DNA from: Promicromonospora citrea
Lineage (GTDB): Bacteria > Actinomycetota > Actinomycetes > Actinomycetales > Cellulomonadaceae
Direction: 5' to 3'
NCBI RefSeq assembly: GCF_013004695.1
Contig: NZ_JABEMG010000016.1
Coordinates: 1-52,235 of the forward strand
DNA length: 52,235 bases
In this document: in pieces, positions 40,671-48,189 of the stretch
How the letters are laid out: the number at the start of each line of letters is the position of its first letter
Numbering within the stretch: position 1 is the stretch's first letter
Notes under the pieces: model-generated
What the model was told of the DNA's origin: nothing
Databases searched by the model: none
What the model saw: the letters and a program-made list of their open reading frames with translations, nothing else
Made by a program: the position numbers and the translations under genes

Positions 40671-42491
40671 GTGCGCTCCCTCCCCTTCGCCGATCCCGGC
40701 ACGCCGCCGCTGCGCGGCCCCGTCACGCTCCTGCTGTGGCTGGCCCGCAAGCAGGCCCGCGTGCTGGCCGGCGCCATGTTCTTCGGGGTGCTCGGGTTCA
40801 CGTGCAGCTCGTTCCAGCCCTACCTGGTGGGCCACATCATCGACAGCGCGACGGAGTCCGGTCTGAGCCGGACCACGTGGACCTGGGCGGCCGTCATGGC
40901 GGGCGTCGGGATCGTGTGGATCGCCTCGAACGCGATCGGCCACCGCTGGGACATCACGGCGTGGATGCACGCCGCCTTCCGCACCTCCCAGCTCGTGACC
41001 CGAACCGTCGCGCGGTCGGGACACAACATCACCAAGGAGCTGCCGACCGGCGAGGTCGTCTCGTCCGTCGCCAACGACACGATGCGGATCGGCGAGGTCT
41101 TCGCCGTCCTCGGGCAGACGATCGGCAGCGTCGCGACGTACACGATCGTCGTGGTGCTCATGCTGCGGCAGTCGCTCACGCTCGGCCTCGTCATCGCGCT
41201 CGGCCTGCCTGTCGTCGCCGCGATCCTCGCCCTGCTGGTCAAGCCGCTGCAGAAGCACCAGAAGAAGCAGCGCGACGCGCAGGGCCGGCTGACCACGCTC
41301 GGCGCCGACACCGTCTCCGGCCTGCGCATCCTGCGCGGCATCGGCGGCGAGAAGGTCTTCACGGGCCGCTACCGCGACCAGTCGCAGAGGGTGCGGCAGG
41401 CGGGGGTCGACGTCGCCGGGACGCAGTCGGTGCTCGACGCCCTGCAGGTGCTGCTGCCCGGCCTCTTCATCGCGCTGGTCGTCTACCTCGGCGCGGCCGA
41501 GGCCCTCGCCGGGCGCATCAGCACGGGCCAGCTCGTCGCGTTCTACGGCTATGCGTCGTTCCTGTCCTGGCCGGTGCACCTGCTCGTGCAGTCGGTCAAC
41601 GTCGTGACCAAGGCGCACGTGGCCGCGGGCAAGGTGGTCAAGGTGCTGCAGGTGGTCCCGGCGACGGGGGCGACCGGCTCGTCGGCCGCGATGCCGCCCG
41701 CCCACGTCCCGCTGGTCGACGAGACGACGGGTGTCACCCTCGAGCCCGGCCGCGTCCTGGCGCTCGTCAGTGCCGACCCGGACGAGTCGGCACGCGTCGC
41801 CGTCCGGATGGGCCGGTTCGACGACGAGGCCGAGACGGACACCCCGGTCACGCTCGGCGGCGTCCGGCTGGCCGACCTGGACAAGCAGGAGCTGCGGGAG
41901 CGGGTCGTCGTGGCCGACGCGACGCCTGCCCTGTTCTCCGGCCGGCTCGCCGGCGAGCTCGACGTGCGCGACGCCGCCGACCGCGCGGCCCTGCTGCGCG
42001 CGATGCACGTCGCCGACGCGCACGACGTGCTGGAGTCGCTGCCGGACGGCATCGAGGGCGAGATCCCGGAGAAGGGGCGCTCGCTGTCGGGCGGTCAGCG
42101 GCAGCGCGTCGCGCTCGCGCGGGCGCTCGTCACCGACCCGGAGATCCTCGTGCTCGTGGAGCCGACGTCCGCGGTGGACGCGCACACCGAGGCGCGCATC
42201 GCGCAGCGGCTGACCGAGTGGCGCCGCGGGCGCACGACGCTGATCGTCACGGCCAGCCCGCTCGTGCTCGACCACGTGGACGAGGTGCTCTTCCTCGACG
42301 ACGGCACGGTCGCGGCGCGCGGCACGCACCGCGAGCTGCTCGACCTCCCGCCGGACGCGCCGGGCGGGCAGGAGGCCGCGCGCTACCGGCGCGTGGTCGG
42401 CCGCTCGCTGGCCGAGGACGACGACACCGAGCTGGACCAGGAGCTCGACGCCCTGCTGGGCGCGAACGCACAGGAAGGAGGCACGGCATGA
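40671..42491 (+). CDS. ABC exporter half-transporter 1, degenerate Walker sites
   Basis: 606 residues: six-helix exporter domain (about 20-315) and a nucleotide-binding domain. In that domain the Walker A GxxGxGKS/T is replaced by LALVSADPDESARVA, the Walker B Asp is V496 (LVLVEPT; the catalytic Glu is E497), and the switch His is missing (VTASPLV). Its signature LSGGQRQRV (from 472) is intact. Partner 2 has the converse pattern, so this subunit is probably not a pseudogene but supplies the signature motif for a heterodimer. Substrate unknown (lipids, peptides, drugs). Ends in a 4-base ATGA overlap with subunit 2. Confidence 0.9.
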   Translation: MRSLPFADPGTPPLRGPVTLLLWLARKQARVLAGAMFFGVLGFTCSSFQPYLVGHIIDSATESGLSRTTWTWAAVMAGVGIVWIASNAIGHRWDITAWMHAAFRTSQLVTRTVARSGHNITKELPTGEVVSSVANDTMRIGEVFAVLGQTIGSVATYTIVVVLMLRQSLTLGLVIALGLPVVAAILALLVKPLQKHQKKQRDAQGRLTTLGADTVSGLRILRGIGGEKVFTGRYRDQSQRVRQAGVDVAGTQSVLDALQVLLPGLFIALVVYLGAAEALAGRISTGQLVAFYGYASFLSWPVHLLVQSVNVVTKAHVAAGKVVKVLQVVPATGATGSSAAMPPAHVPLVDETTGVTLEPGRVLALVSADPDESARVAVRMGRFDDEAETDTPVTLGGVRLADLDKQELRERVVVADATPALFSGRLAGELDVRDAADRAALLRAMHVADAHDVLESLPDGIEGEIPEKGRSLSGGQRQRVALARALVTDPEILVLVEPTSAVDAHTEARIAQRLTEWRRGRTTLIVTASPLVLDHVDEVLFLDDGTVAARGTHRELLDLPPDAPGGQEAARYRRVVGRSLAEDDDTELDQELDALLGANAQEGGTA

Positions 42492-44233
42492 GCTCGGGGA
42501 AGATCCTGCCGATCGCCGACGCCGCCGAGACCTGGGCGTACACGCGCCGGCTGCTGGGGCGGCACCGCACGCCGCTGGTCGTCATCACCGTGGCCAACAC
42601 GGTGGCCGCCGTGGCGGGCCTCGTGGGGCCGTTCGTGCTGGGCCGCCTCGTGGACGGGGTGACGCGGGGCACGACGCTCGAGGCCGCGCGCAACCTCGTG
42701 CTGCTCGCGGTCGGCGCCATCGTGCTGCAGTCGCTCATCACGCGCTTCGCGCAGCGCCGGGCCATGGTGTTCGGCGAGACCGTGTTCGCCGACATGCGCG
42801 AGGAGTTCGTCGAGACGGTGACGTCGCTGCCGCTGTCGACGGTGGAGACGGCCGGGACGGGTGACCTCATCGCCCGCACGACGCGCGACGTCAGCCGCAT
42901 CCAGAACGCCGTGCGGTTCGGCGTGCCGCGCCTCGTGATCGCCGTCGTGAGCCTGGTGCTCACCATCGCCGTGAGCTTCGTGGTGGCGCCTCTCGTGGCC
43001 GTCGGGATGCTCGTCGGCGTGCCCGTGCTCGTCGTCACGGCGCGCTGGTACCTCAAGCGCGCGACGCCCGCCTACCAGCGGGAGTCGGCGGCGTACGCGC
43101 GGCTCGACGGCACCGTCACCGAGTCCGTCGAGGGCGCCCGCACGGTGGACGCGCTGAAGATCGGACGCCGGCGCACGGCCCGCGGCGACGAGGATCTTCA
43201 GGAGGCGTTCCAGGCCGAGCGGGGCACGCTGTTCCTGCGCACCGTGCTGTTCCCCGGCGTGGACTTCGCGTTCATGATCGCGCCGATCTCCGTGCTCGTG
43301 TGGGGCTGCTTCCTCGCGTCGGAGGGCATGGTCACGTTCGGCATGGTGGCGAGCATCGTCATGTACACCTACCAGCTCCAGGGGCCGGTCTGGGAGCTGA
43401 TCTTCTGGCTCGACGAGATCCAGGTCGCCGCCACGTCCCTGTCGCGCATCATCGGTGTCCGGCTCGTGCCGACCGACCGCACCGCGAGCGGCGCCGTGCC
43501 GACCGACGAGCAGGTGCGCGGCGAGCAGGTGCGCTACGCCTACCGCGAGGGCACCGACGTGCTGCACGGCATCGACCTCGACCTGCGGGTGGGGGAGCGG
43601 CTGGCGGTCGTCGGCCCGTCGGGATCGGGCAAGTCGACGCTCGGCCGCATGCTCGCGGGCATCCACCCGCCCACGGGCGGCAGCGTGCGGGTCGGAGGCG
43701 TACCGCTCGTCGACCTGCCGCTCGAGGACCTGCGCAGGCACGTCGCGCTCGTGACCCAGGAGCACCACGTGTTCGTGGGCACCCTCGCCGACAACCTGCG
43801 CCTGGCCAAGATCGACGCGGACGACGACGAGCTCATGGACGCCCTGCGCGCCGTCGACGCGCACGGGTGGGTCGAGGCGCTCGACGAGGGGCTCGCCACC
43901 GAGGTGGGCTCCGGCGGGCACAAGCTCACGCCCGCACAGGCCCAGCAGATCGCCCTCGCGCGGCTCGTGCTGCTCGACCCGCACACGCTCGTGCTCGACG
44001 AGGCCACGTCGCTGCTCGACCCGCGCGCCGCCCGGCATCTCGAGCGCTCGCTCAACGCGGTGCTCGAGGGGCGCACGGTCGTGGCGATCGCCCACCGGCT
44101 GCACACGGCCCACGACGCCGACCGCGTCGCGGTGCTCGACGCCGGCCGCATCACGGAGATCGGCCCGCACGAGGAGCTGGTCGCCGCGGGCGGCGAGTAC
44201 GCGCGCCTGTGGCACAGCTGGCAGCACGAGTAG
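42488..44233 (+). CDS. ABC exporter half-transporter 2, intact Walker sites with altered signature
   Basis: 581 residues. Exporter membrane domain (about 20-320), then a nucleotide-binding domain with Walker A GPSGSGKST (K382), Q-loop VTQEHH, Walker B LVLDEAT (E505), D-loop SLLD and switch H536 (IAHRL). The signature is LTPAQAQQ (from 480) instead of LSGGQ. Combined with subunit 1 this gives one consensus ATP site (this Walker A facing subunit 1 LSGGQ) and one doubly defective site. AAGGAGG precedes the ATG. Followed by palindrome copy 1. Confidence 0.92.
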   Translation: MSSGKILPIADAAETWAYTRRLLGRHRTPLVVITVANTVAAVAGLVGPFVLGRLVDGVTRGTTLEAARNLVLLAVGAIVLQSLITRFAQRRAMVFGETVFADMREEFVETVTSLPLSTVETAGTGDLIARTTRDVSRIQNAVRFGVPRLVIAVVSLVLTIAVSFVVAPLVAVGMLVGVPVLVVTARWYLKRATPAYQRESAAYARLDGTVTESVEGARTVDALKIGRRRTARGDEDLQEAFQAERGTLFLRTVLFPGVDFAFMIAPISVLVWGCFLASEGMVTFGMVASIVMYTYQLQGPVWELIFWLDEIQVAATSLSRIIGVRLVPTDRTASGAVPTDEQVRGEQVRYAYREGTDVLHGIDLDLRVGERLAVVGPSGSGKSTLGRMLAGIHPPTGGSVRVGGVPLVDLPLEDLRRHVALVTQEHHVFVGTLADNLRLAKIDADDDELMDALRAVDAHGWVEALDEGLATEVGSGGHKLTPAQAQQIALARLVLLDPHTLVLDEATSLLDPRAARHLERSLNAVLEGRTVVAIAHRLHTAHDADRVAVLDAGRITEIGPHEELVAAGGEYARLWHSWQHE

Positions 44234-44263
44234 AGGCTGCTGCCCGACCCGGGGCGAGCCGCT

Positions 44264-44329
44264 GAGATCTGGTGTCGGCGTCGAGATCTGGTCGCGCACA
44301 GCCAGATCTCGACGCGAACACCAGATCTC
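44264..44329. repeat. 66-base interspersed palindrome, copy 1
   Basis: Arms of 28 bases (44264-44291 and 44302-44329) flank a 10-base loop. Each arm starts and ends with GAGATCTGG spaced 19 bases apart; pairing is 26 of 28. Same length, spacing and core motifs as copy 2. It lies between the ABC operon (+ strand) and iclR (− strand), so could terminate both. Confidence 0.9.
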
Positions 44330-44380
44330 GCCGGTCGGCACCAGCTACCAGCCGAGCCGAGCAGCCGGCCCGCCGGGCGC

Positions 44381-45163
44381 CTACGTGCCCGCCGGCGCGC
44401 CCAGGCCCGCCGACACCCGGCCCGCCGCCTCACGGACCACCGGGACCAGCGCCTCGAGCCGCTCGGGCGGCATGAACGGGCGCGTCGCGGTGATGCTCAC
44501 GGCCGCGACGATGCCGCCCGACGCGTCCCGGACCGGCGCCGCGACGCAGAGGATCCCCGGCTCGTTCTCCTCGAGGTCGAACGCCACCCCACGAGCCGCC
44601 GAGGCCCGCATGACCTCGACGAACGCGTCGGCGGTGAGAACGTCGCGGTCCAGCCCGTCGTCCGCGGCGGCCGGCCGCTCGGCGCGGAACTGATCGCGCC
44701 AGCGGTCCGGGCTGTCCAGCAGCAGGGCCTTGCCGATGCCCGTGCGGGTCAGCGGCATGCGGTGCCCGATCTGCGAGCGCATCACGGCGCCGCGCGTCCC
44801 GGGGATCTTCTCGAGGTAGAGCACCTGCCCCCTGTCCTCGATCGCGAGGTGCACGGTGTCGCGCACGCGCTCGGCGAGCGCCCGCAGGACCGGCGCGGCG
44901 ACCGCCGTCACCGGGTTCTCCTGCAGCGCCTGGTAGCCGAGCTGGATCAGTGCGGGGCCGAGGGCGTACGCGCCGTCGTCGAGCAGGCGGAGGTAGCCGG
45001 TGGCGCGCAGGAGCTGGAGCAGCCGGTGCGTGGTGCTGCGGCCGACGCCCGTCTCCTCCGCGATCTCCCGGAGCCGGGTGCGGCCGCGGGCCACGGCGTC
45101 GACGACGGCGATCCCGCGCGCGAGCGTCTGGGTGCCGGGCGGCGGCGTCGGTGCGGTGGTCAC
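44381..45163 (-). CDS. IclR-family transcriptional regulator (probable galactonate regulator)
   Basis: 260 residues. N-terminal winged helix (about 12-75, ARGIAVVDAVARGRTRLREIAEETGVGRSTTHRLLQLLRATGYL) and a GAF-like IclR effector domain (DTVHLAIEDRGQVLYLEKIPGTRGAVMRSQIGHRMPLTRTGIGKALL; GVAFDLEENEPGILCVAAPVRD; AAVSITATRPFM). Divergent from dgoK with 72 bases between, sharing a dyad, so it most likely controls dgoKAD in response to galactonate or KDPGal. GTG start with TACGGT 6 bases upstream. Confidence 0.92.
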   Translation of the reverse strand: MTTAPTPPPGTQTLARGIAVVDAVARGRTRLREIAEETGVGRSTTHRLLQLLRATGYLRLLDDGAYALGPALIQLGYQALQENPVTAVAAPVLRALAERVRDTVHLAIEDRGQVLYLEKIPGTRGAVMRSQIGHRMPLTRTGIGKALLLDSPDRWRDQFRAERPAAADDGLDRDVLTADAFVEVMRASAARGVAFDLEENEPGILCVAAPVRDASGGIVAAVSITATRPFMPPERLEALVPVVREAAGRVSAGLGAPAGT

Positions 45164-45169
45164 CGTCGC

Positions 45170-45175
45170 ACCGTA
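45170..45175 (-). promoter_or_regulatory. -10 box of the iclR-family gene
   Basis: TACGGT on the minus strand six bases before the GTG start. Confidence 0.55.
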
Positions 45176-45177
45176 CC

Positions 45178-45214
45178 GTCCCGATTATGGGGACGCGGTT
45201 CCCGCGATCGGGAC
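45178..45214. promoter_or_regulatory. Candidate IclR operator between the divergent iclR and dgoK promoters
   Basis: GTCCCGAT (45178-45185) and ATCGGGAC (45207-45214) are perfect inverted arms 21 bases apart, with an inner GGGA/TCCC pair. Arm centres are 29 bases apart, near three helical turns, and the dyad lies over the expected -35 regions of both promoters. Confidence 0.55.
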
Positions 45215-45222
45215 GCCCGGCC

Positions 45223-45228
45223 TACCGT
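45223..45228 (+). promoter_or_regulatory. -10 box of dgoK
   Basis: TACCGT seven bases before the dgoK ATG. Confidence 0.5.
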
Positions 45229-45235
45229 CCCGGAC

Positions 45236-46258
45236 ATGCCCGACGCCGCGCTCGTCGCCCTCGACTGGGGCACCACCACGTTCCGCGCCTGGCTGCTGGA
45301 CGGCACCGGCGCGGTGCTCGACGCGGTCCGGTCCGATGACGGGGTGCTCGCGGTCTCGGCGGGCGCGGCCGCAGCTCGCTCGCCGGACGACGGCGGTGAC
45401 ACCACCGCCGCTCCGAGCGGCACCGCCCCCGCCGCGGCGCGCGCCCGGGCGTTCGAGGCAGTGTTCACGGCGCGGTGCGGACCCTGGCTCGCCGCACACC
45501 CTGGCCTGCCGGTGCTCTGCGCCGGCATGGCCGGGTCGAACCACGGGTGGGCCGAGGCCGGCTATCTCGACGTCCCGGCGACGCTCGACGGGCTCGCCGG
45601 CCGGCTCACGGCCGTGTCCGCCGACGGCGTCACGGTGCACCTCGTACCGGGGCTGCGGGTCACGGGCGCCGACCCCGACGTCCTGCGGGGCGAGGAGGTG
45701 CAGCTCGCCGGGGTGCTCGCGACGTCGGACGACCCGCCGTCGACCGTGGTGCTGCCCGGCACGCACTCGAAGTGGGTGCGGCTGGACGACGGCCGCGTCA
45801 CCGGGTTCACCACCGCCATGACCGGCGAGCTGTACGGACTGCTGCTGCGGGGGAGCATCCTCGCGCGGCTCGCGGAGGGCGACCCGGGGCCGGAGGTCGG
45901 CGCCGCCTTCGTGCGCGGGCTGGACACCGAGCGCGACCACGGCGACGACCGTGGCCTGCCCGCGCTGCTGTTCACCGCGCGCACGCTCGTGCTCGCGGGC
46001 CGGCTCGACCCCGCGGACGTCGCGGACTACGTGTCCGGCCTGCTCGTGGGCGCCGAGGTGCGGCACGGGCTCCGCGGCGTGACCGGCGTCGTCGCGCTGT
46101 GCGGGCCCGGGTCCACCGCCGACCGGTACCGCCACGCGCTCGAGCGGCACGGTGCGAGCGTGCGCGTCGTCGGCCCGGAGGCCGCCGTCGCCGGGCTGTG
46201 GCGCGTCGCCCGTGACGCGGGCCTCGTGCCCGTCCCCGACCCCGAGGAGACCGCATGA
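45236..46258 (+). CDS. dgoK: 2-dehydro-3-deoxygalactonokinase
   Basis: 340 residues. VALDWGTTTFRAWLLD is the DgoK phosphate-1 motif; VLCAGMAGSNHGWAEAGYLDVP, VHLVPGLRVTG, RGEEVQLAGVL and VVLPGTHSKWVRLDDGRVTGFTTAMTGELYGLL are further family signatures. Phosphorylates 2-keto-3-deoxy-galactonate with ATP in the De Ley-Doudoroff pathway. It is about 40 residues longer than typical because of an Ala-rich insert around residues 40-70. Overlaps dgoA by 4 bases. Confidence 0.93.
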   Translation: MPDAALVALDWGTTTFRAWLLDGTGAVLDAVRSDDGVLAVSAGAAAARSPDDGGDTTAAPSGTAPAAARARAFEAVFTARCGPWLAAHPGLPVLCAGMAGSNHGWAEAGYLDVPATLDGLAGRLTAVSADGVTVHLVPGLRVTGADPDVLRGEEVQLAGVLATSDDPPSTVVLPGTHSKWVRLDDGRVTGFTTAMTGELYGLLLRGSILARLAEGDPGPEVGAAFVRGLDTERDHGDDRGLPALLFTARTLVLAGRLDPADVADYVSGLLVGAEVRHGLRGVTGVVALCGPGSTADRYRHALERHGASVRVVGPEAAVAGLWRVARDAGLVPVPDPEETA

Positions 46259-46875
46259 CCTACCCCGACACCGGGCTCGTCGCCATCCTCCGCGGCGTGA
46301 CCCCGGACGAGGCCGTCGAGATCGCCGCGGCGGTGCTCGACGTGGGCTTTGACGCCGTCGAGGTGCCGTACAACTCGCCCGACCCGCTGGAGTCGATCCG
46401 CCGCATCCGCTCCGCGGCCCCCGCTGGCAGCCGGGTCGGGGCCGGCACCGTGCTCACGCCCGACGACGTCCGCCGGGCCGCCGACGCCGGGGCGTCGCTC
46501 ATCGTGTCGCCGAACACGCGGGCCGACGTCGTCGCCGAGACCGTACGTCTCGGCCTCGAGAGCTACCCCGGGGCCGCGACGCCGACCGAGGCGTTCGTCG
46601 CGCTCGACGCCGGGGCGCGCGCGGTCAAGCTGTTCCCGAGCGCGGCGGTCGGCGTCGACGGCATGCGGGCGTGGGCGAGCGTGCTCCCCGCGGGCACGGG
46701 CCTCGTGCCGGTCGGTGGCGTCGACGCCGACAATCTCGCGGACTGGGCCCGCGCGGGCGCGGCCGGCGCCGGGATCGGCACGTCGTTGTACCGCCCGGGC
46801 GACGGGGCGTCGGTGGTCGCCGACCGTGCGGCAGCGCTGGTCACCGCCTGGCACACGGCCCGCGCGTCCCCGTGA
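46255..46875 (+). CDS. dgoA: 2-dehydro-3-deoxy-6-phosphogalactonate aldolase
   Basis: 206 residues, KDPG/KDPGal aldolase barrel. LVAILRGVTPDEAVEIA, FDAVEVPYNSPDPLESI (with the catalytic Glu), VGAGTVLTPDDV, SPNT, and the Schiff-base Lys in GARAVKLFPS. N-S-P at the V-E-V-P-x-N-S-P site marks the galactonate branch rather than the gluconate branch. Cleaves KDPGal to pyruvate and glyceraldehyde 3-phosphate. ATGA overlap with dgoK; a 165-base gap with palindrome copy 2 separates it from dgoD. Confidence 0.94.
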   Translation: MTYPDTGLVAILRGVTPDEAVEIAAAVLDVGFDAVEVPYNSPDPLESIRRIRSAAPAGSRVGAGTVLTPDDVRRAADAGASLIVSPNTRADVVAETVRLGLESYPGAATPTEAFVALDAGARAVKLFPSAAVGVDGMRAWASVLPAGTGLVPVGGVDADNLADWARAGAAGAGIGTSLYRPGDGASVVADRAAALVTAWHTARASP

Positions 46876-46900
46876 GCCGCGTCCACCGCCCACTCCTCGC

Positions 46901-46915
46901 CGCTGAGATCTGGTG
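46901..46915 (+). repeat. Extra half unit of the palindrome
   Basis: CGCTGAGATCTGGTG is perfectly complementary over 15 bases to 46991-47005, the outer right arm of copy 2. It could pair there instead of the normal partner (46936-46948), giving two mutually exclusive folds. Confidence 0.65.
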
Positions 46916-46935
46916 CCCGGCCCCGCACCGCCGCC

Positions 46936-47001
46936 GAGATCTGGTGTTCGCGGCGAGATCTGGCCGTGCACGACCAGATCTCGCCGCCAACACCAGATCT
47001 C
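46936..47001. repeat. 66-base interspersed palindrome, copy 2, inside the dgo operon
   Basis: Same 28-10-28 design as copy 1 (arms 46936-46963 and 46974-47001); arms pair at 27 of 28. At the position where copy 1 has T:A (44281:44312) this copy has G:C (46953:46984), a compensatory change. It lies between dgoA and dgoD. Confidence 0.9.
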
Positions 47002-47040
47002 AGCGAGCGGCGATCCCACCCCCACCCCGGAAGGACCCCC

Positions 47041-48189
47041 GTGAAGATCACCTCCGTGACGACGTTCGCCGTGCCGCCCCGGTGGCTGTTCGTGCGGATC
47101 GAGACCGACACCGGCGTCGTCGGCTGGGGCGAGGCCACGCTCGAGGGCCGGGCGGCCACCGTCGCGGCGCTCGTCGAGGAGCTCAGCGACTACCTCGTCG
47201 GCCGGGACCCGCGCCGCATCGAGGAGCACTGGACCGTGCTCTACCGCTCGGGGTTCTACCGGGGCGGCGGCCTGCACATGAGCGCGCTGGCCGGCATCGA
47301 CCAGGCGCTCTGGGACATCACCGGCAAGGCGCTCGGCGCGCCCGTGCACGAGCTGCTCGGCGGCCGGGTGCGCGACCGGATCACGGTCTACTCGTGGATC
47401 GGCGGCGACCGGCCCGCCGAGACCGCCGCCCAGGCACGGGCCGCCGTCGAGCGCGGGTTCTCCGCGGTCAAGATGAACGGCCCCGAGGAGCTGCAGTACC
47501 TCGACACGCGCGCCAAGGTCGAGAAGGTGGTCGCCAACGTGTCGGCGGTGCGCGAGGCCGTCGGCCCGGACGTCGGCATCGGCGTCGACTTCCACGGCCG
47601 CGTGCACCGCCCCATGGCCCGCGTGCTGCTCGACGCGCTGGCGCCGTTCCACCTCCTGTTCGTCGAGGAGCCCGTGCTCTCGGAGCACGTCGACGGCATC
47701 GCGGACGTGCTGCGCGGCTCGGCGACGCCGGTCGCGCTCGGCGAGCGGCTGTTCTCCCGGTGGGACTTCAAGAGCGTCATCACGTCCGGCGTCGTCGACG
47801 TGGTGCAGCCCGACCTGTCCCACGCGGGCGGCATCACCGAGGTGCGCAAGATCGCCGCGATGGCCGAGGCCTACGACATCGCCGTCGCGCCGCACTGCCC
47901 GCTCGGCCCGATCGCGCTCGCCGCGTGCCTCCAGCTCGACGCCGTCGCCCACAACGCGGTGATCCAGGAGCAGAGCCTCGGCATCCACTACAACACCTCG
48001 AACGACCTGCTCGACTACCTCGTCGACCCGTCGGTCTTCGACTACGTCGACGGGTCGGTCACCATCCCGCGCGGACCCGGCCTCGGCATCGAGGTCGACG
48101 AGGACTACGTGCGCGAGCGCGCCGCCGAGGGGCACAGGTGGCGCAACCCCGTGTGGCGGCACGCCGACGGGTCGTTCGCCGAGTGGTGA
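47041..48189 (+). CDS. dgoD: D-galactonate dehydratase
   Basis: 382 residues, mandelate racemase/enolase superfamily. MKITSVTTFAVPPRWLFVRIETDTGVVGWGEAT is the N-terminal capping domain; the barrel has VDFHGRVHR (Asp ligand and catalytic His), LFVEEPV and ALGERLF (Glu ligands), and APHCPLGPIALAACLQLD with the second catalytic His, all as in E. coli DgoD. Removes water from D-galactonate to give 2-keto-3-deoxy-galactonate. GTG start with GGAAGGA. No galactonate transporter is adjacent. Confidence 0.95.
   Translation: MKITSVTTFAVPPRWLFVRIETDTGVVGWGEATLEGRAATVAALVEELSDYLVGRDPRRIEEHWTVLYRSGFYRGGGLHMSALAGIDQALWDITGKALGAPVHELLGGRVRDRITVYSWIGGDRPAETAAQARAAVERGFSAVKMNGPEELQYLDTRAKVEKVVANVSAVREAVGPDVGIGVDFHGRVHRPMARVLLDALAPFHLLFVEEPVLSEHVDGIADVLRGSATPVALGERLFSRWDFKSVITSGVVDVVQPDLSHAGGITEVRKIAAMAEAYDIAVAPHCPLGPIALAACLQLDAVAHNAVIQEQSLGIHYNTSNDLLDYLVDPSVFDYVDGSVTIPRGPGLGIEVDEDYVRERAAEGHRWRNPVWRHADGSFAEW

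What the first reader, a model, noticed from the sequence alone, without database searches (positions are those of the whole stretch)
44264..47001. A 28-10-28 interspersed palindrome in two copies with a compensatory base change
Copies at 44264-44329 and 46936-47001 have identical geometry: 66 bases, 28-base arms, 10-base loop, and GAGATCTGG at both ends of each arm exactly 19 bases apart. Arms pair at 26/28 and 27/28. Between copies a stem pair differs as T:A (44281:44312) versus G:C (46953:46984), so pairing is kept while sequence changes; the loops differ completely. This pattern suggests selection on a folded or cruciform structure, as in REP/BIME or MITE-like elements. The copies bracket iclR-dgoK-dgoA, and neither lies in a gene. 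I know no named family with this layout.
Basis: partly seen in the sequence, partly recalled or inferred. Interest (0 to 1): 0.72.

Follow-up and report, generated by a model that had tools for sequence, protein, structure and literature searches.

The report
Four-box palindromes after converging genes
The bacterium carries a few dozen copies of a long DNA palindrome, built from a 9-letter word repeated every 19 letters, mostly just past the ends of genes; it is probably a new kind of dispersed end-of-gene hairpin whose word differs between related bacteria.

Summary
A covariance model finds at least 33 places in the 4.96-Mb genome, each on both strands, and matches in 11 of 13 genomes of the genus. 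Each copy is a near-complete palindrome with four GAGATCTGG boxes on a strict 19-bp grid, also across the centre; the loop is largely conserved, not different. Arms covary strongly in two sets of copies. Related bacteria use other box dialects (GAGATCGGT, GAGATCAGGA, GAGATCCGGA) on the same grid. Copies lie mostly soon after stop codons, with an excess between convergent genes. At one orthologous junction, 7 of 13 genomes carry long hairpins from three sequence families. No RAYT-type transposase was found in the genus and there is no U-tract. Sense-strand G·U does not exceed A·C, so complementarity looks kept at DNA level, by arm-to-arm copying or symmetric selection. Most likely function, inferred: a two-way 3'-end hairpin without U-tract. 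Any box-reading protein is unknown. It resembles REP but fails the REP/RAYT criteria tested. New variant of a known kind.

The parts
44264..44329 (.). copy 1: 66-bp palindrome, 28-base arms and 10-base centre, between the converging ABC-transporter and iclR-type genes (30 and 51 bp from their 3' ends)
44264..44272 (+). box 1 of copy 1
44283..44291 (+). box 2 of copy 1
44302..44310 (-). box 3 of copy 1
44321..44329 (-). box 4 of copy 1
46905..46913 (+). extra outer box of copy 2, 31 bp (start to start) outside the core
46936..47001 (.). copy 2: 66-bp palindrome core between dgoA and dgoD (60 bp after dgoA, 39 bp before dgoD)
46936..46944 (+). box 1 of the core of copy 2
46955..46963 (+). box 2 of the core of copy 2
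46974..46982 (-). box 3 of the core of copy 2
46993..47001 (-). box 4 of the core of copy 2
42488..44233 (+). ABC-transporter permease/ATP-binding gene that ends 30 bp before copy 1
   Evidence: all hits below the curated cut-offs of the named subfamilies
44381..45163 (-). IclR-type regulator gene, converging on copy 1
   Evidence: hits below curated cut-offs
46255..46875 (+). 2-dehydro-3-deoxy-6-phosphogalactonate aldolase gene (dgoA)
47041..48189 (+). galactonate dehydratase gene (dgoD), downstream of copy 2

Best explanation
These are members of a dispersed family of intergenic DNA palindromes. SHOWN: each has a strict box grid (9-bp word, 19-bp period, two or more boxes per arm, inverted about a GYGCAC centre), lies mostly soon after stop codons, and is over-represented between converging genes. 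INFERRED: transcription from either side makes a hairpin of about 28-34 bp that ends or protects the transcript and limits read-through into the opposing gene, so it acts as a two-way 3'-end hairpin without a U-tract. INFERRED: the arms stay complementary because replication template switches copy one arm onto the other and/or because both strands need the fold. INFERRED: the boxes stay fixed because something, probably a still unknown DNA-binding protein, reads the word; the word differs by lineage like a dialect.
For: Position: of 76 places in the loci held, 28 convergent, 33 tandem, 5 divergent, 5 inside a called gene, 5 undetermined. Among 209 gaps of 20-600 bp in own-genome and G194 loci, elements lie in 21 of 44 convergent, 16 of 112 tandem and 2 of 53 divergent gaps; Fisher P 3e-7 for convergent against the rest. 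Loci were chosen around elements, so only the contrast between classes counts. Facing stop codon to first box: 53 of 84 within 60 bp. At ABC|iclR, 7 of 13 genomes have an inverted repeat scoring 18 or more against shuffled maxima of 6-9, from three sequence families. Covariation: 59 double-change cells against 28.7±3.8 shuffled in 25 copies, 55 against 26.4±4.2 in 31 further copies. At 12 orthologous-junction pairs boxes are identical at 415/432 positions, loops 84/120, spacers 135/240, flanks 149/460; 29 spacer pairs changed on both sides with pairing kept, 36 changed otherwise.
Against: No U-tract: 0 of 84 3' flanks have four T in a row, and the terminator scan finds 0 in 44000-47300. Sense-strand G·U 46 against A·C 47 in 30 tandem copies: no RNA signature. 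Copy 2 lies between dgoA and dgoD, where a strong terminator would hurt dgoD; of 12 genomes compared only G000 and G189 carry an element there. About half of the copies are not convergent. Two of the nine genomes that keep the ABC|iclR pair, the sister G194 among them, have no long hairpin by the score used. Only 33 own places were found, so most gene ends do without. No expression data.
Confidence: 0.45

Rival explanations
1. Selfish miniature mobile palindrome (MITE-like) moved by an unidentified non-RAYT enzyme; gene 3' ends are simply safe or preferred landing sites.
For: Patchy distribution in the genus, 0 to 75 exact-pattern hits per genome. dgoA|dgoD holds an element only in G000 and G189 of 12 genomes compared, not in the sister G194, whose dgoD is 97% identical (tree), so independent gains are the simpler reading. 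Species-specific architecture: 24 of 31 own copies have 2+2 boxes, 18 of 26 G194 copies at least three on each arm.
Against: Own copies show no subfamily structure: best pair 27/30 variable sites, null mean of the best pair 26.65, P 0.55, so no sign of a recent burst; G194 shows a slight excess (28 against 25.79, P 0.023). No transposase among the 25 commonest Pfam families of 81 neighbours. No target duplication could be seen at the one likely empty site (read by eye).
Confidence: 0.25
2. Docking array for a DNA-binding protein (regulator or chromosome organiser): palindromic AGATCT cores at 19/20/19-bp spacing bind dimers side by side.
For: Box invariance with variable spacers. The grid is kept across the centre in 31 of 31 own copies. 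Dialects on the same grid in other families. No RNA strand bias.
Against: Spacer complementarity is not needed for double-stranded binding. Solitary boxes are rare, 1 in 189,227 bases. Few copies lie in divergent, promoter-rich gaps.
Confidence: 0.2
3. RAYT-mobilised REP/BIME/REPIN.
For: Small dispersed mostly extragenic palindrome with inverted doublets.
Against: PF01797 in 0 of 13 genus genomes, while the control finds it in 5 of 14 known genomes; no GTAG at the foot.
Confidence: 0.04
4. DNA-uptake-type word whose inverted pairs double as terminators, as in Neisseria and Haemophilus.
For: 9-bp word, dialects between species, inverted pairs at gene ends.
Against: Uptake words are mostly solitary and number hundreds or more (recalled); here 1 solitary box in 189,227 bases against 113 in or near elements (the stretches were taken around elements).
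Confidence: 0.02

Closest known systems
REP / BIME / REPIN (RAYT-associated)
   Same: Small extragenic palindromes in many copies; inverted pairs of a short conserved word with a spacer between (passages of PMC3116915, abstract among them; passages of PMC8266576)
   Different: No RAYT-type gene (PF01797) found in the genus, no GTAG foot, a four-box 19-bp grid, boxes repeated along each arm
Inverted pairs of DNA uptake words as possible terminators (Hin-1, Nem-4, Pam-1 families)
   Same: A short word repeated at set short distances gives a conserved stem-loop, possibly a terminator (section 15 of PMC2267715)
   Different: Here the word is almost never solitary in the DNA held
TRIT, terminator-like hairpin model of M. 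tuberculosis (RNIE)
   Same: Lineage-specific hairpin after genes in a high-GC actinobacterium (recalled; the RNIE paper is not held; TRIT is only named in a passage of PMC3526491)
   Different: Not compared by sequence; a box grid and near-perfect palindromy are not part of what I recall of TRIT
ERIC, NEMIS, RUP/BOX and similar interspersed palindromes
   Same: Intergenic, palindromic, lineage-limited (recalled)
   Different: Other sequences and no 19-bp box grid (recalled)

Membership tests
REP/REPIN (RAYT-associated) | A Y1/HUH TnpA-REP (RAYT) gene in the genome | tested here: not met
   PF01797: 0 of 13 genomes; control found in 5 of 14 known genomes
REP/REPIN (RAYT-associated) | Conserved tetranucleotide (most often GTAG) at the foot of the stem | tested here: not met
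   Foot consensus CCGCT / AGCG in the 25-copy alignment
REP/REPIN (RAYT-associated) | Dispersed extragenic palindromes in many copies | tested here: met
   33 places, mostly intergenic; far fewer than the hundreds usual for REPs
Intrinsic terminator (canonical) | GC-rich hairpin followed by a U-tract | tested here: not met
   Hairpin yes; 0 of 84 flanks with four T in a row; scan of 44000-47300 finds 0
Bidirectional 3'-end hairpin without U-tract | Excess at convergent 3' ends and a symmetric fold | tested here: met
   Convergent excess; similar model scores on both strands
Bidirectional 3'-end hairpin without U-tract | RNA 3' ends or termination at the element | not testable with these tools
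   Needs 3'-end sequencing or a reporter assay
MITE | Target-site duplication and a related autonomous element | tested here: inconclusive
   Likely empty site in G194 at dgoA|dgoD, too diverged to call a duplication; no transposase among the 25 commonest families of 81 neighbours
DNA uptake sequence | Abundant solitary copies, many in genes | tested here: not met
   1 solitary box in 189,227 bases of own DNA held
Any Rfam family | Match at the curated gathering score over the element | tested here: not met
   0 matches in the window. In 11 related loci 6 matches at E up to 1, one of which (a 19-base HIV-1_SD match in L192 at 1348-1366, outside the hairpin) passes its gathering score by 0.4 bit; the others are far below theirs; all taken as chance

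The most novel reading that the evidence does not exclude
A fast-evolving superfamily of nested palindromes in several actinobacterial families whose 19-bp unit carries a lineage-specific recognition word. Each genome brings its copies to its own dialect and box number (2+2 in this genome, mostly 3+3 or more in the sister species), even at the same gene junction, without a RAYT. In this genome copies behave like independent draws from one profile, so the family is kept by an unknown word-reading protein together with arm-to-arm copying, and not by ordinary copy-and-paste descent.
Probability: 0.3. Interest if true: 0.8.

Novelty: new variant of a known kind. Interest (0 to 1): 0.55.

Why it matters
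Bacterial interspersed palindromes are usually tied to RAYT transposases or explained as terminators (recalled). This family has no RAYT that I could find, has a ruler-like box grid, changes its word between species, and shares gene junctions with other palindrome families. That makes two open questions testable in one culturable genus: what keeps long palindromes complementary (selection or template switching), and what ends transcription between converging genes in high-GC bacteria where there is no U-tract.

Tried and rejected
RAYT search: 0 of 13. Rfam: none in the window; related loci, chance only. A DUF559-type gene (name recalled, not searched) lies next to elements in three loci of family f19 (L147, L148, L151); tblastn found no other relative in the loci held at that time; rejected as a general partner. 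Uptake word: rejected on the solitary count. RNA-specific selection: G·U against A·C, no bias in tandem copies (46:47); on the + strand 28:24 in convergent and 93:79 in all 68 copies used. Vertical descent of copies at shared junctions: mean spacer identity 0.554 over 14 orthologous pairs; for the 7 G000-G194 pairs 0.55 against 0.597 for other G000-G194 pairs, P(random at least as similar) 0.895, so descent could not be shown. Viral contigs: one match, not followed. Class sample: 4 of 394 genomes match the stricter pattern, all already known. Exact pattern in genome contigs: 39 stretches, 26 of them Promicromonospora; of the 13 others three actinobacterial ones (L034, L040, L046) were searched with the model and had no match, the other ten were not followed and are probably chance. 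My first gene caller chose antisense frames and was replaced. Papers: searches (the word itself; 371 papers hold it, 20 listed; Promicromonospora with palindrom, 9 papers) listed nothing on these repeats; some searches were seen as listings; passages or sections of PMC3116915, PMC8266576, PMC2267715 and PMC3526491 were read; PMC8794818 and PMC8604942 only as the start of the abstract in a listing.

Rows dropped and limits: genome searches with the model scored the best 150 first-look candidates per genome (8,684 in the own genome), so copy numbers are floors. Alignment A1 holds 25 own copies of exact geometry; the other 8 of 33 places were left out (contig ends L079, L097; degenerate or shorter L078, L085:3200, L087, L093:4246; two on contig C143 not fetched). 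A2 holds 31 copies from other genomes, one of the sister dialect (L069:4074), several at junctions orthologous to A1 copies; cut, longer and low-scoring copies and the sister-dialect genomes were left out. (pair counts) and 69 used only copies of length 78. One search dropped one pair (L090/L071, indel) and did not take the second L080 copy or the two sister-dialect pairs. One search took 81 of 111 neighbouring proteins. The tree used three gene segments, one missing for G187; some nodes have low support.
Full report
WHAT IS THERE. Both copies are as described. Copy 1 (44264-44329) lies between an ABC-transporter gene and an iclR-type gene that converge on it. Copy 2 (46936-47001, with an extra box at 46905) lies between dgoA and dgoD. 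Each folds far more stably than shuffles on either strand. The 19-bp grid of GAGATCTGG boxes also runs across the centre, so the element is one near-complete palindrome with four boxes.

HOW MANY. In the own genome the double-box pattern occurs 50 times, the reversed control 0. A covariance model made from 25 copies finds 66 matches, that is 33 places read on both strands; only the best 150 first-look candidates were scored, so this is a floor. In the genus 11 of 13 genomes match. Contig lengths identify G194 as P. thailandica DSM 26652, G189 as Promicromonospora sp. AC04 and G190 as sp. MEB111. In a family sample the exact word pair is found in 6 of 221 genomes: five of the genus, and one with a single odd-spaced hit.

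DIALECTS. Other species of the genus carry the same grid with the word GAGATCGGT or GACTTCGGT. In a sample of 396 genomes of the order, 32 match the loose pattern; many of these are single hits that appear to lie in coding DNA. Clear elements on the grid were read in genomes of two other families: GAGATCGGA or GAGATCGGT in G305, and GAGATCAGGA or GAGATCCGGA in G461, G576, G324 and G256. The inner GAGATC-to-GATCTC distance is 22 bp in two G305 loci (L158, L160), as here, and 31 bp in the others. The reversed control had 1 match in the 396 genomes. At class level a stricter pattern finds only known carriers, 4 of 394.

ARCHITECTURE IS SPECIES-SPECIFIC. Counting boxes with at most one mismatch, 24 of 31 measured own copies have two boxes per arm; spacing within arms is 19 bp in 62 of 66 cases and across the centre in 31 of 31. 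In the sister species G194, 18 of 26 copies have at least three boxes on each arm, the third usually 21 bp further out.

COVARIATION. In 25 own copies 59 cells are changed on both sides with pairing kept, against 28.7±3.8 after shuffling; slid structures reach 18 at most. In 31 further copies from other genomes the numbers are 55 against 26.4±4.2, slid at most 30; several of these lie at junctions shared with the first set, so the sets are separate but not fully independent. At 12 orthologous-junction pairs boxes are 96% identical, loops 70%, spacers 56%, flanks 32% (not aligned, so near chance); 29 spacer pairs changed with pairing kept, 36 changed otherwise.

WHAT KEEPS THE ARMS ALIKE. If RNA pairing on the transcribed strand were selected, G·U should be tolerated more than A·C. 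In 30 tandem copies the counts are 46 and 47, with 77 other mismatches. So the data show no RNA-specific selection. They fit DNA-level symmetry: selection on both strands, or copying of one arm onto the other by template switching during replication, a process reported to create and maintain hairpins (PMC8794818, start of abstract in a listing only). I cannot separate these.

WHERE THEY SIT. Of 76 places in the loci held, 28 are between convergent genes, 33 tandem, 5 divergent, 5 inside a called gene (possibly over-extended starts) and 5 undetermined because the contig or the stretch held ends there. Among 209 gaps in own-genome and G194 loci, elements occupy 21 of 44 convergent, 16 of 112 tandem and 2 of 53 divergent ones (Fisher P 3e-7 for convergent). 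Because loci were fetched around elements, only the contrast between classes is meaningful. 53 of 84 facing stop codons are within 60 bp of the first box, and no 3' flank has four T in a row.

THE JUNCTION TEST. At the ABC|iclR junction the ABC gene is still the neighbour in 9 of 13 genomes (read by eye). Seven of the nine have a long inverted repeat there, from three sequence families: GAGATCTGG (G000), TTCGGCAGTTGGC (G186, G191, G193) and TTGAGTGC (G187, G190, G192). G194 has only an 8-bp stem; G188 has an interrupted repeat seen by eye but not by the score. The other two words are repeat families too: TTCGGCAGTTGGC occurs in 6 of 13 genomes, up to 19 hits, and CGTTGAGTGCTGG in 13 of 13, up to 107 hits. 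The TTCGGCAGTTGGC family has a GAGATCGG box near its centre and may be related. A second convergent junction (the gene right of L080:3586) again shows different hairpins in different species, and none in G188 and G190. This is the best argument that a hairpin at a convergent junction is useful while its sequence is interchangeable.

AGAINST THAT. Copy 2 sits between dgoA and dgoD. Of 12 genomes compared, only G000 and G189 have an element there. On a three-gene tree G000 pairs with G194, which lacks it, and G189 lies elsewhere. Two independent gains are the simplest reading, which speaks for some mobility and not for a needed terminator at this site.

HISTORY OF THE COPIES. Own copies show no excess of close pairs over a column-shuffled null (best pair 27 of 30 variable sites, null mean 26.65, P 0.55). 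G194 shows a slight excess (28 against 25.79, P 0.023), from two pairs, one of them about 190 bp apart. Copies at orthologous junctions are no more alike than other pairs. So either spacers change very fast, or copies are replaced or gained again at the same junctions. This is unusual for a copy-and-paste family and I have no full explanation.

PARTNERS. No Y1-type transposase in the genus. Among 81 neighbouring proteins no Pfam family is in more than five (TetR_N), and no transposase is among the 25 commonest of 132 families.

VERDICT. The finding is real. It is a new family, with relatives in at least two other actinobacterial families, of the known kind 'interspersed intergenic palindromes'. 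It works most likely as a two-way 3'-end hairpin (inferred). It is not a member of REP/REPIN by the tests made. Function, box-reading protein and way of spread remain to be shown.

Noticed in passing
L207, L208, L209, L192, L196, L198: A second palindrome family, CGTTGAGTGCTGG...CCAGCACTCAACG with word starts about 50 bp apart, is in 13 of 13 genus genomes with up to 107 exact word hits; most of the copies read lie between convergent genes.
   Followed up: partly
L201-L206: A third palindrome family, TTCGGCAGTTGGC..GAGATCGG around the centre, in 6 of 13 genomes, some copies with extra outer repeats.
   Followed up: partly
L069:4074-4151 and the gap after L036:5330: P. thailandica carries the sister dialect GAGATCGGT beside the GAGATCTGG dialect.
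   Followed up: no
L183, L178 (dgoA 3' end, bases about 1440-1480): In G191 and G193 the end of the aldolase gene itself holds one GAGATCTGG word without a full palindrome, and in G191 a GAGATCTC follows at once; it may be chance or a remnant.
   Followed up: no
L143:2136 onward: Tandem 34-bp repeats with GATCTC follow an element in G461.
   Followed up: no
L127: Direct tandem 19-bp units close to GAGATCAGGCACGCCGGGC without an inverted arm in G022, another genus of the family.
   Followed up: no
L147, L148, L151: A DUF559-type (name recalled) gene lies beside elements in three loci of family f19; L147 and L148 are the same neighbourhood in two species.
   Followed up: partly
G000 contigs C77, C232, C54: Elements lie at or within about 175 bp of contig ends (C77 ends exactly at a box), so these palindromes may break the draft assembly.
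   Followed up: no
L200:1845-1872: One viral contig (272 kb) holds a single double-box match.
   Followed up: no
L085:2918-3021: One own copy carries four + boxes in a row with three identical 10-bp spacers between them, which looks like recent slippage of the 19-bp unit.
   Followed up: no
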